The notes beneath the pieces were generated by a model. It saw nothing but the letters and a program-made list of their open reading frames with translations, searched no databases and was not told the DNA's origin. DNA of 61,023 bases, from positions 1 through 61,023 of IMG/VR virus record IMGVR_UViG_3300042554_000484; one strand, given 5' to 3'. This document shows, in pieces, positions 46,471 to 52,780 of this stretch; within the stretch, counting starts at the first letter, position 1; each line of letters begins with the position of its first letter. The stretch comes from a virus. Both the position numbers and the translations under genes were made by a program.

Positions 46471-49400
46471 CTACCTCCGCGCCGTCTGGGCCTGCTGCGC
46501 GACCTGCGCCAGGGCCTCCATGACCGCCAACTTCACGGTCGAGGATACGGCCGCAGCGTTAGCGCCGTCACCCACCGAAACCTGCACCTGCACCCCACCG
46601 CTCGCCACCGTGATCGGCGCCCCGGTAGCCCCGACAGATGGAACGTAGGTGGTAGTAGCCGATCGGCCCGTGCGATTACCACCGCCGTTGCCGCCTCGAT
46701 TGCCGCCGCCGCCTCCGCCGCCGCCGGTGGCCGGAGGGGTCAGGGCTGCCTGCCAAGCCCTCGCGATCTCCTCGCCGATGGCCTTGATCGCCTCAAGTAC
46801 CACAGTCTTCTCCGCCTCAAGGCCAGCAAGGGTCTGCGCGAGAAGATCCCTACCCGCCGCATACCCAACGTCCAGAAGGGGAGCAATAGCAGTCTGAATC
46901 CCCGCGACCGTTTCGTCGATCTGCTTGACGACACCGTCATACTCACTCTCAAGGCCATCCCGCAGTTTCTTCGCCGCCGTGACACCCGCGTCATACATGA
47001 TGCCGGCCTGAGTATCACCGAACTTGGCCGCCGTCTCCTCATTCTTCGCCGTCAACGAGTTGATGTAGGCGACCTGCTCCGCACTAGCACCCGCCAACAC
47101 CGCAGCGAAAGAACCACCCTGATCCGGTCCAGCCTCAAGGATCTGCTGGATGACGCTCTCCGAAACACCCTTCTTACGCAGCGCCTCGATATTCTTGATG
47201 TACGTCGCCGTCGCGGCGGCACGCTGCTCAAGACCCTTGATGAACTCCTCAGTCGACGACACGTTGCCGCTGATCTTCGAGAAGTTACGAATCGAATCAG
47301 CAAACTTCTTCTCAGCGTCCTCCCGTACGCGGGTCGCTTCAGCGAACTTAGCCTCGGCATCCGCGAGTTGCTTCGCCAGCCCTTCACGCTTGTTGATGAG
47401 ATCGACAAGAGCCTGAGTCTGCGCCCGCAGATACTCGACAGTCGGATCAGCAACTCCATCCTCATAACCATCGAGGCGAGCGCGAACCATCTCCTCGAAC
47501 TTGTCGAACAGTTGAATCGCCTGATCGACACTAATCGAAGCCGAGTTGTACGCCTTCTCGAACTCGCTCGACTGGCCGAAACGACGCTCCATGAAAGCAG
47601 CGAGACTCTTGCGAGCATCTTCGCGAGCCGCCATTCGATCCTGAATAGCCTCGATTTCAGCGTTGATCTCATTGAGACGGCCAGTCAACTTCTCAAGGTC
47701 GCGAAGTTGGGTCTCGAACCGCTCACTGACATTACCCATGACACTGTCGGCGTAAGCCTGAGCAGCCTCACGAGTCATACCAGCCTTACGGGCACGATCG
47801 TAAAGACGCTGAGACATCGCATCCCATGCCGCGTCGATACCCTGCCCACCTGCCAGGTCTGCCATGAGTTGAGTACGAATATCCCCAAGTCGCTCACGCG
47901 GCATCGTCGCAAGTTTCCTAGCCGCAGCCACATTCTTCAGAGCAACCTTGTACGCCTTGGCAGCGTCCGTAGAATCCCGAAGCGCCATCGCGAGAGCACG
48001 CTCCGCAGCAGCCACCTCGCGAGCCGAAGCCTCACCCTTGCTGCGCTCCGCACGAACATCCTTCAACGCCTGACGCGCATCAGCAACACGATCGTTCGCG
48101 TCCTTCATCGCGAACCAGGCATCCTGCACCGTGCGGCCAACATCGCGAACGAAGTCCTGAGCGCCCCGCAGCCACCCCATCTTCAGACCCGCGATAAGAT
48201 CATCACCGATCTCCATAAACACACGAGACGGAGACTTGATCTCACCGGCAGCCTTGGCCGCAGCAATTGCAGCCCGGACTACCTCGCGAGCCGCCGCCGC
48301 GACCGGGCCTTGCCCGTTATTCAGACTTACAATCATGCCCTGAATCAAGGCGTTCGCGATCACGTTGCCCGTGTTGCGGACCTGCCCGGAAGTCTGCACA
48401 AGGCCCTGCACCAAGCCGACACCGACCATGCGGCCAGCCTCAATAGCGAACGTCGAAGGCGACGACACACCCGCGCCGGCGTTCATGCCGTCGATGAGCG
48501 TCTCGCCACCTACCAGGCCAGCCGCGTTGATGGCCGACTCCTGCTCCGACATGCCCGCAGTGATGCCCTGCGCGATCGCGTTGCTCACGTCAAGGCCCGC
48601 AGTCTCAGCCGCAGTAACAGCGTCGCCCATGTTCTCGACTGCCTGCTTCGATGCGTCGATCGACCCCTTGATGCTGTTGTACAGATCCGACTCAGTAGGC
48701 TTGATGCCCTGACCCTTCAGGCCAGCCTTGACCTCAGCCTCCAAGTCCAACAGCGCCGCCAACTCTTGCTGCGGATCCTGAAGAGACTTCGCGTAAGCCA
48801 TCTGCGCTTCCGCGTAACTCAACACCGAGTCACGGTTAGCGGTAGCGGCCTCGTTGTTCTTGTCGATACCGGCCGTGTTCTCGGCCAACTGCTCCTTCAT
48901 TTCGCGCAGAGCAGCCGTCGCCCGATCCGCTGCGCGTGCACCCGTGATGATGTCATTCAACTCAGAGTAGGTGTTCTTCAACGCCATCACGGCACGTTCA
49001 GTAGCGCGAGTGACCTCGGTGATAAGCCCTTGGTTCTGCTGCACCTGATAAGCCATGTGCGAGTGCGTTGTCGCCGTTTCCGCAAGCGACGACCGGATCG
49101 AGGTATCGGCCGCACGCGCCTCTACCGCAGCCTCTCGATACCCTCTACTTCTCTCGCGATTAGCCGCCTGCGAGGCCAGAGCGGACTGGTACTCCGCGTA
49201 TGCCTGATCGGCTGCCGCGTCGGCCACCTGCTGCGCCGCCTCTGTCGCCGCATCGGCCGCGCCCTGAAAGTTCTTCTCGAAGGTGAGCAACATGCCGGCA
49301 GTTTCATTAGGCAACAGGCCAGTCGCCATCGTTTCCTGAGCCGCGTCGATCTTCGCCTGAAACTCAGCCGCCGCCTCGCCGCCCTTGGAAATAGCAAGAG

Positions 49401-51018
49401 CCGCGTCATTGACGCTGATGCCCAAAGCCTGAAGAGTCGCTACGTCCTCACGGCTCAGATCCATGCGGAACTGCTCAGTGAGAGCCGCCTGCGTCATCTC
49501 GGTAAACGCACCCGTTGTCTCGTCGACAGTGTCCTTGAGTTTCGCGACAAGCGCCTCGGCCTGCGCCGATCGTCCGCTGAACACCTCGAACGCGACAGAC
49601 ACACCGATCAACGCCCAGCCAATAGGCCCCAGCGATGTGAGCAAGCCTCTCGCCGCAGTAGCCATGGTGCGGAAGGCGCCCACAACGGCAGTCGCCGTAG
49701 TCCTGGCAGTCAGCGCAAGTATCTGTAGCCCAGCGCGAACATTAGTGACGCTCACGAGCACGCCACCCGCAGCCAACTGTGCTCCCGTCCGCATCGTCGC
49801 GAACGATGCAGTGACACGCTTATTGGCGTTTTCCCAGCCGACTTGGTAACGCCGAGACAACAGAATCATCGTGCCCATGACGCCGATGAAGACTTGGATC
49901 GGACCAGGCAGCGCCTCGAACATACTCAGTACGGAGCCCAGGGCATTAGCGATAGCCACGATCGGACCAGCCAACGCGGAAATAATGTCGGCCATCCCAG
50001 TGAAAGCACCAACAATGTCGAAGATCGGTGGGATAAGGGCTGATGCGATAGGCACCAACTCCGTCATCAACTCCGCACCCTGAATGAGCGCGGGGCCGAG
50101 TTGCTGCGCGAAGCCTTCAGCCATCGTCTCGACCGCAGGCATTACGCCCATCAGGGCATTAGAAAGCATCGGCATCGACGGCATGAGACCGTCGATCAGG
50201 GCATTGTTTACCGTGTCAGAGAACGTCGACATGACGCCGGCAAGGGTCTTCGATTGCCGTTCCATAGCCCCAGCGGCACCGGGGAACTCCTGCATCGCCT
50301 TGATGATCGCTTGGATCGCGGTCTCGGAATCGAGAGCCCCCGACTCCATGGCCTTAGACATCGCTTGCATGTCACCAGAGAACAGTTGCTCCGCGATCGC
50401 GACCTTCGCATTGAAGCCAGGAAGAGCATTACCGATCTGCATAAGATCCTGAGACAGCACACGACCGGCAGACTTCATCTGACCGAACGCATAAACCACC
50501 GCCGAAATCGAAGACGCCGGCTGGCCCAGAGCCGAAACGATGTCACCGATCGCCGGAAGCAGATTGTCTTTCACTTCGTCGGCGGCGTAACCGATCGACA
50601 GCAGTCTCTTGACCGCATCCAATGTCTGCGGCAACTCGAACGGGGTGGTCGCGGCGAAGTCACGCAAATCACCCAGATACTCTTTCGTCTCAGACGTGGC
50701 CTGCTCAACCGTCTTACCCATCCCCACGAAGATGCCCTCGATGGAGATAACGGTCTGCTCGTAATCCTTAGCAGCCTGGATGCCCTGCATCGCGAACTGC
50801 TTGACCATACCCGTCGCACGGGTAAGCGCCTGAGCACCCAACGTACCCAGAGCAGCACCGAACGCAATGGTCGATGTCTTGACCTCGCCGATGGACTTAT
50901 CCATCTGCGGCAACTGGTCAGCGAACGCCTGCGTAGCACGCTGCGCGTCACGCACAGCACGCACATACGCGGACGTGTCAGCGGTGTACCGGGCGTCGAC
51001 ATGAGCGACTGTTGCCAC
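46471..51018 (-). CDS. Tape measure protein
   Basis: 1515 aa from a GTG at 51018 (GGAGG upstream). It sets tail length and lines the tube; by the usual ratio of about 0.15 nm per residue the tail would be near 220 nm. N-terminal domain typical of the family (GMVKQFAMQGIQAAKDYEQT, ATTPFELPQTLDAVKRLLSI, GRVLSQDLMQIGNALPGFNA). Hydrophobic segments around residues 330-420, long coiled coils after 1000 and a Gly/Asn-rich C-terminal stretch (GGGGGGGNRGGNGGGNRTGR). Confidence 0.95.
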   Translation of the reverse strand: MATVAHVDARYTADTSAYVRAVRDAQRATQAFADQLPQMDKSIGEVKTSTIAFGAALGTLGAQALTRATGMVKQFAMQGIQAAKDYEQTVISIEGIFVGMGKTVEQATSETKEYLGDLRDFAATTPFELPQTLDAVKRLLSIGYAADEVKDNLLPAIGDIVSALGQPASSISAVVYAFGQMKSAGRVLSQDLMQIGNALPGFNAKVAIAEQLFSGDMQAMSKAMESGALDSETAIQAIIKAMQEFPGAAGAMERQSKTLAGVMSTFSDTVNNALIDGLMPSMPMLSNALMGVMPAVETMAEGFAQQLGPALIQGAELMTELVPIASALIPPIFDIVGAFTGMADIISALAGPIVAIANALGSVLSMFEALPGPIQVFIGVMGTMILLSRRYQVGWENANKRVTASFATMRTGAQLAAGGVLVSVTNVRAGLQILALTARTTATAVVGAFRTMATAARGLLTSLGPIGWALIGVSVAFEVFSGRSAQAEALVAKLKDTVDETTGAFTEMTQAALTEQFRMDLSREDVATLQALGISVNDAALAISKGGEAAAEFQAKIDAAQETMATGLLPNETAGMLLTFEKNFQGAADAATEAAQQVADAAADQAYAEYQSALASQAANRERSRGYREAAVEARAADTSIRSSLAETATTHSHMAYQVQQNQGLITEVTRATERAVMALKNTYSELNDIITGARAADRATAALREMKEQLAENTAGIDKNNEAATANRDSVLSYAEAQMAYAKSLQDPQQELAALLDLEAEVKAGLKGQGIKPTESDLYNSIKGSIDASKQAVENMGDAVTAAETAGLDVSNAIAQGITAGMSEQESAINAAGLVGGETLIDGMNAGAGVSSPSTFAIEAGRMVGVGLVQGLVQTSGQVRNTGNVIANALIQGMIVSLNNGQGPVAAAAREVVRAAIAAAKAAGEIKSPSRVFMEIGDDLIAGLKMGWLRGAQDFVRDVGRTVQDAWFAMKDANDRVADARQALKDVRAERSKGEASAREVAAAERALAMALRDSTDAAKAYKVALKNVAAARKLATMPRERLGDIRTQLMADLAGGQGIDAAWDAMSQRLYDRARKAGMTREAAQAYADSVMGNVSERFETQLRDLEKLTGRLNEINAEIEAIQDRMAAREDARKSLAAFMERRFGQSSEFEKAYNSASISVDQAIQLFDKFEEMVRARLDGYEDGVADPTVEYLRAQTQALVDLINKREGLAKQLADAEAKFAEATRVREDAEKKFADSIRNFSKISGNVSSTEEFIKGLEQRAAATATYIKNIEALRKKGVSESVIQQILEAGPDQGGSFAAVLAGASAEQVAYINSLTAKNEETAAKFGDTQAGIMYDAGVTAAKKLRDGLESEYDGVVKQIDETVAGIQTAIAPLLDVGYAAGRDLLAQTLAGLEAEKTVVLEAIKAIGEEIARAWQAALTPPATGGGGGGGGNRGGNGGGNRTGRSATTTYVPSVGATGAPITVASGGVQVQVSVGDGANAAAVSSTVKLAVMEALAQVAQQAQTARR

Positions 51019-51032
51019 GGACCCGCCTCCTT

Positions 51033-51296
51033 CTAACTCTTACGCTTCATGGCCTGCTCGTGCTCCCAGTTGCGGAGTTGCCACAAGGCCATCCATTCAG
51101 TGAGTTCCTGGCTCGTAACAGGACGGTGGGCCGGGGAGCCATGAAGCAACTCCCCGACCGTCCGCCCAAGTTTCTCTGCCAACTCGAACAGGAAGCGTCT
51201 TTCAGGATTCTTCAGGAAATCGCTTCCCGGCAGCATCCGTTGACTGCTCACCCTCCATGCCGGAGAGGCGAAGCCCAACCTTCGCGAGACGGTCAA
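51033..51296 (-). CDS. Tail assembly chaperone, frameshifted extension (T frame)
   Basis: Open frame +1 relative to the preceding gene; it overlaps it by 95 bases. The meaningful part is ERRFLFELAEKLGRTVGELL ... ELTEWMALWQLRNWEHEQAM KRKS, typical of the C-terminal extension of gpGT-like chaperones. No own ribosome binding site near a useful start, so it is most likely reached by frameshifting at 51202-51207. Confidence 0.75.
   Translation of the reverse strand: MTVSRRLGFASPAWRVSSQRMLPGSDFLKNPERRFLFELAEKLGRTVGELLHGSPAHRPVTSQELTEWMALWQLRNWEHEQAMKRKS
51202..51207 (-). other. Probable programmed +1 frameshift site TCC-TGA
   Basis: The G frame ends ...GAA GAA TCC TGA. Slipping +1 at TCC skips the T and continues GAA AGA CGC in the T frame, giving a 185-aa fusion. 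TCC-TGA is the sequence used in eukaryotic antizyme +1 frameshifting; most phage GT pairs use -1. The shift could occur elsewhere in the 95-base overlap. Confidence 0.5.
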
Positions 51297-51591
51297 TCGC
51301 CTGCGCCGACTTCTGCATCAGCGCCGCAACATCACCATCCTCGAAGATGTGAGCGCCAGTCGCGGGGTCGTATGCCGTGGCGATGACGGTCTCGGCGTAC
51401 AACATGCTCGCCTTGACCTCACCACCATCAGCAACGGCCTCGAAGATGCGTGCACGGTCAGCGCCGGACATGCCACGCACCTCGACAGTGACATCCCACT
51501 CGGGGATCTCCACCATCTCGGACGCGATGTCAGTTGCCTGAAGGATCTGGTCGCGCAAGGACACTAGGGTCACTTCCTTTCGAGGGGCCAC
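51202..51591 (-). CDS. Tail assembly chaperone (G frame)
   Basis: 129 aa. VSLRDQILQATDIASEMVEI PEWDVTVEVRGMSGADRARI resembles gpG-like chaperones that coat the tape measure during tail assembly. Located between tail tube and tape measure, as expected. Confidence 0.85.
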   Translation of the reverse strand: MAPRKEVTLVSLRDQILQATDIASEMVEIPEWDVTVEVRGMSGADRARIFEAVADGGEVKASMLYAETVIATAYDPATGAHIFEDGDVAALMQKSAQAIDRLAKVGLRLSGMEGEQSTDAAGKRFPEES

Positions 51592-51619: not shown

Positions 51620-52048
51620 TCAGGAGGTGGCGCGGGTGATGGCGCCGGTGCACTGGAACGAAGCGGAGAACGTGCTCACGTCGCCGACGCTACCGGAAAC
51701 CTCGTAGGAGGTGAGGTAGCACTCGCCCGTGTACTTCGGGTTGCTTGAGCCAGCCGAACCGCCACCGGGCGTGTAGGCGAAAGTGACCGAAGCCTCCTGG
51801 CCGAGGATGCCGGAGAGAACCGCATCGACAGTGGAAGCGCCAGCCGCATCGAACTTGCCCGACACGCTGATCGTGGCGTCGGACAGGCCGATGATGTACT
51901 CCTTGGCGTTGTCGCCGAAGGTCGTGGTCTCTGCCGTCTCGATGTCGCGGCTGATCGAAACCTCGTCGCAGAACGCAGAGATGTCGACTGGGGTGCCGGC
52001 GGCATTGTCAATCTCGAACTTGCTCTTCTTGCCATGTGTGAAAGCCAC
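51620..52048 (-). CDS. Tail tube protein 1
   Basis: 142 aa. MAFTHGKKSKFEIDNAAGTP, ETAETTTFGDNAKEYIIGLS and DATISVSGKFD are the tail-tube core of actinophage siphoviruses. Forms stacked hexamers around the tape measure. Close paralogue of the next gene upstream. ATG at 52048. Confidence 0.85.
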   Translation of the reverse strand: MAFTHGKKSKFEIDNAAGTPVDISAFCDEVSISRDIETAETTTFGDNAKEYIIGLSDATISVSGKFDAAGASTVDAVLSGILGQEASVTFAYTPGGGSAGSSNPKYTGECYLTSYEVSGSVGDVSTFSASFQCTGAITRATS

Positions 52049-52060
52049 TGTATGACTCCT

Positions 52061-52780
52061 TTACTTCCGGGCGAACGCCATTGTGTAGGTGACCGACCCG
52101 GAGGAGCCTCCGGGGGCGTGAGAGGCACGGAGGTAGCGATTCACCGTGCCCGTTACCGCGATGCGCTCGGCGGTCGCGGTAGTCGAGGAGACACTCGCGA
52201 AGGTCACGAGGTCAGCGAATGTGACGTTGTCCGACGAGTGCTGCACCTTGAACGTGCTCGACCCGTCGCGGGTGTTAGCGGTGACATGCAGGTAGCCGGC
52301 GCCACCATTAGCGGAAGATGCCGCGTTGTCCTGCGCTGTACCCGTGGCAGCGGTGGTGGCTGCCGTGTTCGCTCCAAGGAGCACACCACGGTCGATGCCG
52401 CCGTCCGCCTGAATCGACAGGCTCGTCGACACGACATCACCGACAGGGCTGCTGATCTCGTAGGAGGTCTTGCGGGCAGCGCACGAGTAGGACGCCTTAC
52501 CGACCGCCAGACCCTCGGGGGCGATAGTTGCGACGCTGGCAGCGTCAACACCCAGGGCCGCTTCGATCTGCTTGTCGACTGCGCTCTCGTCACCATCGAA
52601 CATGCCCGAAACGGACATGGTGCCGTCCTTCAGACCGATGATGTACGACTTAGCCGAAGAGCCGAACGTCGTCGTCTCCGCAGTCTCCACGTCCTGAGAT
52701 GCCGAAGCCTCATTGAAGAACGTCGACAGGTTCCCTGCACCGACGAGAACGCCGCTGCTCTTGCCATGGACGAAGGCCAT
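52061..52780 (-). CDS. Tail tube paralogue with C-terminal Ig-like domain
   Basis: 239 aa. Residues 1-135 repeat the tube core (MAFVHGKSSGVLVGAGNLST, ETAETTTFGSSAKSYIIGLK, DGTMSVSGMFD). Residues 150-239 add a beta-sandwich (VQHSSDNVTFADLVTFASVS, VNRYLRASHAPGGSSGSVTY) like surface-exposed Ig domains on tail tubes. Either a second tube subunit mixed into the tail or a specialised terminal ring. Confidence 0.8.
   Translation of the reverse strand: MAFVHGKSSGVLVGAGNLSTFFNEASASQDVETAETTTFGSSAKSYIIGLKDGTMSVSGMFDGDESAVDKQIEAALGVDAASVATIAPEGLAVGKASYSCAARKTSYEISSPVGDVVSTSLSIQADGGIDRGVLLGANTAATTAATGTAQDNAASSANGGAGYLHVTANTRDGSSTFKVQHSSDNVTFADLVTFASVSSTTATAERIAVTGTVNRYLRASHAPGGSSGSVTYTMAFARK

What the first reader, a model, noticed from the sequence alone, without database searches (positions are those of the whole stretch)
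51202..51296. Unusual +1 frameshift at TCC-TGA in the tail chaperone genes
Seen: the T frame is +1 to the G frame; the G stop context TCC TGA A would allow a +1 slip straight into ERRFLFELAEK. Known: most phage G-GT pairs use -1 slippery sites; TCC-TGA +1 is the eukaryotic antizyme site, and bacterial prfB uses CTT-TGA. Inference: stop-codon-coupled +1 shifting produces the long chaperone.
Basis: partly seen in the sequence, partly recalled or inferred. Interest (0 to 1): 0.6.

Follow-up and report, generated by a model that had tools for sequence, protein, structure and literature searches.

The report
Tail-chaperone +1 frameshift at UUU-C

Summary
The G/T tail-chaperone pair and its +1 frame relation are real. 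The named site (TCC-TGA, 51207-51202, minus strand) is almost certainly not where the shift occurs. In 104 distinct homologous loci with T in the +1 frame, all 104 carry an in-frame TTT followed by C at one position (window 51219-51216, context CGA TTT C CT GAA GAA TCC TGA); elsewhere in those G genes TTT-C occurs 0 times in 11,784 codons. TCC followed by a stop occurs in 84 of 104; the rest run through it and stop later. Bases between TTT-C and the stop vary mostly at T-frame third positions, so T is already being read before TCC-TGA. Relatives with T in the -1 frame (G_GGA_AAA) give the fusion GK|RFLxNPERRF; a +1 slip on UUU-C gives GKRF|LKNPERRF, the same protein. A profile of the -1 fusions scores the UUU-C product highest, with the TCC-TGA product about 7 bits lower. 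Best explanation: P-site tRNA-Phe slips from UUU to UUC while CCU waits in the A site. UUU-C +1 sites are known (influenza PA-X, amalgaviruses) and one was proposed for a halovirus tail chaperone. Untested by experiment here: a new variant of a known kind.

The parts
51202..51591 (-). G: short tail assembly chaperone (129 aa from GTG 51591; likely true start GTG 51564, 120 aa), stop TGA 51204-51202
   Evidence: PHROG 344, 4.8e-21; homologues
51216..51219 (-). Shift site UUU-C: TTT (51219-51217) in P site, C (51216) skipped
   Evidence: present in 104 of 104 distinct +1 loci; only invariant codon-plus-base in the permitted overlap
51033..51215 (-). T extension read after the shift, from CTG (LKNPERRFLFELAEK...KRKS)
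   Evidence: T-frame constraint starts here
51033..51591 (-). GT fusion, complement(join(51033..51215,51217..51591)), 185 aa from GTG 51591
   Evidence: product matches -1 relatives without gaps
51202..51207 (-).
   Evidence: TCC followed by a stop in 84 of 104 loci; CC begins the T-frame Pro codon CCN
51124..51160 (-). Downstream hairpin (CGGU...ACCG), about 56-95 nt 3' of UUU-C; role unknown, also seen in some -1 relatives
46471..51018 (-). Tape measure protein gene directly after T (genome context expected of G/GT)
51620..52048 (-). Major tail protein gene directly before G
   Evidence: PHROG 10528, 3.3e-44

Best explanation
Some ribosomes translating G reach CGA UUU CCU with peptidyl-tRNA-Phe in the P site and CCU in the A site. 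The tRNA lets go of UUU and pairs again one base downstream on UUC, a better match for its GAA anticodon. Reading goes on in the +1 frame as CUG AAG AAU CCU GAA..., giving the GT chaperone ..DAAGKRF|LKNPERRFLFELAEK... The remaining ribosomes read four more codons and stop at UGA, giving G. As in phage lambda, G and GT are inferred to coat the tape measure protein and recruit the tail tube subunit. Shown by sequence comparison: frame, position, product. Inferred: P-site slippage, ratio, role.
For: TTT-C in 104 of 104 distinct +1 loci, including 23 loci gathered after the site was proposed; 32 of 32 representatives under 85% identity use TTT although TTT/TTC is 33/28 elsewhere in their G genes and 10/98 in the window's genes; no other in-frame TTT-C in 11,784 G codons. 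Two loci (L110, L115) have a T-frame stop just upstream, so the shift cannot lie before their ACG codon next to TTT. From +4 on, most variation falls on T-frame third positions (+6, +12, +15), with CCN Pro kept in 32 of 32. Product equals that of -1 relatives without gaps; the -1 fusion profile is maximal for a shift giving this product. Distant isolate Mae-JY09 (72% GC, TTT:TTC 2:109 in the genes counted) keeps GCC CGA TTT CCT GAG with T in +1 and no stop for 93 nt. In 79 of 104 loci there is no T-frame start codon before conserved T. UUU-Ynn is noted as shift-prone in bacteria (PMC5009743) and UUU-C was shown in influenza PA-X (PMC3498833).
Against: No peptide or reporter data. Slip with the preceding codon (CGA/ACG/CGG/CAG/AGG) in the P site would give the same protein, and only conservation and pairing argue against it. 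CCU is not a rare codon in this window (33 of 118 Pro codons), so a slow A-site codon is not shown. No Shine-Dalgarno-like stimulator was found upstream. The loci are related by descent, so counts are not independent; the strongest independent point is one distant phage.
Confidence: 0.9

Rival explanations
1. One reading: stop-coupled +1 slip at TCC-UGA, as in antizyme or prfB.
For: TCC TGA is present in the window and in 83 of 104 loci; phage +1 shifts at a codon before a stop exist (Listeria CCC-UGA, PMC5009743; SPP1 CCC-UAA, PMC6316719).
Against: 20 of 104 loci have no stop after that codon and several lack TCC; T-frame constraint begins upstream of it; tRNA-Ser re-pairing on CCU mismatches the first base; product scores 7 bits lower.
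Confidence: 0.03
2. A -2 shift (as in phage Mu) reaches the same frame.
For: Same frame; Mu precedent for gpGT (PMC3498833).
Against: Re-pairing two bases back (tRNA-Phe from UUU onto GAU or CGU) is very poor; it would add a residue relative to the gapless alignment with -1 fusions.
Confidence: 0.03
3. T is made separately by internal initiation, without a shift.
For: The window T frame has TTG 51296 and an ATG upstream of the conserved part; two-gene annotation is common.
Against: 79 of 104 loci have no ATG, GTG or TTG in the T frame before conserved T; TTT conservation at the nucleotide level would be unexplained; -1 relatives are annotated as joined in Arthrobacter, Streptomyces and Rhodococcus phages.
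Confidence: 0.03
4. RNA polymerase slippage or an assembly error creates the frame change.
For: Frame changes can arise either way.
Against: Three U residues are too short a run for known polymerase slippage; many independent assemblies and one isolate share it.
Confidence: 0.01

Closest known systems
Lambda-type G/GT tail assembly chaperone frameshift (Xu, Hendrix and Duda 2004, cited in PMC5009743)
   Same: Two overlapping ORFs between major tail protein and tape measure genes; short and long chaperone from one start
   Different: Here +1 on UUU-C instead of -1 on a X_XXY_YYZ heptamer
Influenza A PA-X UCC_UUU_CGU +1 site and amalgavirus UUU_CGN (PMC3498833, PMC5052127)
   Same: tRNA-Phe re-pairing from UUU to UUC in the +1 direction
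   Different: Bacterial DNA virus, A-site codon mostly CCU (also CCA, CAU), preceding codon mostly CGA; no experiment here
HF1-group haloviruses: proposed TTT-CGC +1 in the tail chaperone pair (PMC7230728)
   Same: Same gene pair, same direction, same TTT-C tetranucleotide; also without experiment
   Different: Archaeal myoviruses, different following codon, very near the stop; only six genomes compared there
Listeria phage PSA/A118/A500 tsh (AAA CCC_UGA) and SPP1 gp17.1* (CCC_UAA) +1 shifts
   Same: +1 programmed frameshift in phage structural genes
   Different: Stop-coupled proline codon, major tail protein rather than chaperone
Arthrobacter (Laroyevirus), Streptomyces and Rhodococcus phage chaperones, -1
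   Same: Homologous G and T; G_GGA_AAA/C or U_UUC at the homologous position; same fusion junction
   Different: Opposite shift direction

Membership tests
Lambda-type G/GT tail assembly chaperone pair | Two overlapping ORFs between major tail protein and tape measure genes | tested here: met
Lambda-type G/GT tail assembly chaperone pair | Sequence relation to known chaperone families | tested here: met
   PHROG 344 4.8e-21, PHROG 337 8e-4, fused PHROG 14766 1.2e-9 across the junction; Pfam below cut-off
Lambda-type G/GT tail assembly chaperone pair | Second product made by frameshift | not testable with these tools
   needs mass spectrometry; comparative evidence only
-1 heptamer class | X_XXY_YYZ with T in the -1 frame | tested here: not met
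   T is +1; the -1 frame opens only 7 nt before the stop
UUU-C +1 class (PA-X like) | In-frame UUU followed by C, downstream ORF in +1 | tested here: met
   104 of 104 loci
UUU-C +1 class (PA-X like) | Junction peptide with Phe decoded once, +1 | not testable with these tools
   predicted ..GKRF-LKNPER
Stop-coupled +1 class (antizyme, prfB, PSA) | Shift codon immediately followed by a stop, conserved | tested here: not met
   stop absent after that codon in 20 of 104 loci

The most novel reading that the evidence does not exclude
The tetranucleotide UUUC is a two-way recoding hinge in one old chaperone family. Some lineages (Rhodococcus phages, Thermobifida P1312, L114) would shift -1 with UUC slipping back to UUU; the window's lineage shifts +1 with UUU slipping forward to UUC, at the same residue and giving the same protein. 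Direction has flipped within the family while the product stayed fixed, perhaps helped by the downstream hairpin.
Probability: 0.4. Interest if true: 0.6.

Novelty: new variant of a known kind. Interest (0 to 1): 0.45.

Why it matters
It gives a large natural data set for a +1 shift site in bacteria (over a hundred distinct loci), where no general +1 motif is agreed. It suggests selection holding the fusion protein while the direction of slippage changed within the family. It also gives annotators a rule: in tail chaperone pairs with T in +1, look for in-frame TTT-C rather than the stop codon.

Tried and rejected
Stop-coupled TCC-TGA. +1 on GGG-A upstream (51228-51225): allowed by pairing and by frame in the window, but absent from most +1 loci and outside the 5' bound of L110/L115. 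-2 shift: poor pairing, adds a residue. Internal initiation: no start codon in 79 of 104 loci. Upstream Shine-Dalgarno-like stimulator: mean duplex energy equal to control. Close 3' stem: mean z near 0 for the first 60 nt. Rfam: no match. Bacterial genome scan for close prophage relatives: two weak hits only, not used. Host of the window was not determined; no tRNA genes in it.

Full report
What was checked. The minus-strand pair at 51591-51033 is as described: G ends GAA TCC TGA and T lies in the +1 frame, open from 113 nt before the G stop. The pair sits between a major tail protein gene and a tape measure gene and matches tail-chaperone families. The window is a 61 kb virus record without tRNA genes. 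Three other contigs have the same junction.

Gathering relatives. Scans with G, with an alignment of G, and with T gave over 200 loci; phage records gave 19 to 29 more distant ones. G and T were found in each by profile search and the relative frame was read off. Of the first set, 84 distinct loci have T in +1 and 30 in -1.

The shift site. All +1 loci hold an in-frame TTT followed by C at one place; in the window this is 51219-51216, four codons before the TCC-TGA junction's stop. After the site had been proposed, 23 further distinct loci were collected and all have it, giving 104 of 104. Elsewhere in the same G genes there is no in-frame TTT-C in 11,784 codons. In 32 representatives under 85% identity TTT is used 32 times, against 33 TTT to 28 TTC elsewhere in G; in the window's own genes TTT:TTC is 10:98. 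In -1 relatives that have Phe at the homologous place it is TTC ten times and TTT twice, so the fixed TTT is tied to the +1 direction.

The named site. TCC followed by a stop is found in 84 of 104 loci. The others read TCC GCA, ACC TCA, CCC GCA, GCC ACA, TCC GGA, TCC CGA or TCC AGA and the like, and G ends 21, 33 or 93 nt after TTT. The apparent conservation of CC comes from T: these two bases begin a T-frame proline codon, CCN, kept in 32 of 32 with N varying. Within +4 to +15 variation is mostly at +6, +12 and +15, third positions of T and first positions of G, which changes G residues (Glu, Lys, Gln) while T keeps Leu and Pro. T is therefore being translated before TCC-TGA.

Bounds without assumptions on slipperiness. 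Two loci (L110, L115) have a T-frame stop directly before CGT TTC, so the shift cannot lie further upstream than ACG; T-frame constraint from +4 says it is not later than TTT. Slip with ACG/CGA or with TTT in the P site gives the same protein; TTT is the conserved one and the only one with good re-pairing.

The product. -1 relatives give DAAGK|RFLQHPERRFLFELAEK; the window with a UUU-C slip gives DAAGKRF|LKNPERRFLFELAEK, gapless. A profile built from 29 -1 fusions scores the window product 256.5 bits for a shift at this codon (the same protein results from a shift one codon earlier) and 249.3 at TCC-TGA; averaged over 32 loci the TCC codon is about 7 bits below the best. The fused PHROG 14766 agrees (39 against 32.4 bits).

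A distant test. Phage Mae-JY09 (GenBank PP395641) has a chaperone only 29% identical and 72% GC, yet holds GCC CGA TTT CCT GAG with T in +1; its G runs on so that its stop lies 93 nt after TTT, and TTT is 2 of 111 Phe codons in the genes counted. This is the best independent support and speaks directly against stop coupling.

Evolution. On a G tree the +1 loci need two changes of direction; one +1 locus (L038) sits with -1 loci on a starred branch, so a second gain or a loss is likely, but columns are few. A net gain of two bases between the old -1 heptamer and TTT-C is enough to turn one form into the other while keeping product length (inference). Five -1 members (Madraxi, Jflix2, REQ1, P1312, L114) lack a heptamer and have U_UUC at the same residue, which suggests that the same four bases serve both directions; this is a lead only.

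Stimulators. No anti-Shine-Dalgarno pairing above background and no close stem. A hairpin 56-95 nt downstream has mean z -2.6 and some paired changes (18 cells with both sides changed against 5.7 in shuffles), but strong folds occur in the same region of some -1 relatives and it lies far from the site, so its role is open.

Known background. UUU-Ynn is described as shift-prone in bacteria without a stop (PMC5009743), UUU-C was shown in influenza PA-X (PMC3498833), proposed for amalgaviruses (PMC5052127), and TTT-CGC was proposed for the tail chaperone of HF1-group haloviruses (PMC7230728). So the kind is known; the CCU form, its breadth, and the change of direction in one family are what is added. 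The literature library is partial, so prior description elsewhere cannot be excluded.

Noticed in passing
L168 (Madraxi), L173 (Jflix2), L174 (REQ1), L011 (P1312, near 2839), L114 (near 2115): -1 chaperone pairs without a heptamer; U_UUC lies at the residue where the +1 lineage has UUU_C.
   Followed up: partly
window 51124-51160, minus strand; same place in most +1 loci: Hairpin CGGU...ACCG with some compensatory changes; strong folds there in some -1 relatives too.
   Followed up: partly
L170 (PP395641, Mae-JY09): Deposited as a Microcystis phage but 72% GC, far above its stated host as I recall; host assignment looks doubtful.
   Followed up: no
window 51620-52048 and 52061-52780, minus strand: Two neighbouring major-tail-protein-like genes that match each other's families, the second with an extra C-terminal part.
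   Followed up: no
L038 near 4367: A +1 chaperone pair that groups with -1 loci on the G tree: possible second change of direction.
   Followed up: partly
L009, L012, L013 (Arthrobacter Wheelbite, Waltz, Edmundo): Phage records where the -1 shift is not annotated as a joined gene although G_GGA_AAA is present.
   Followed up: no
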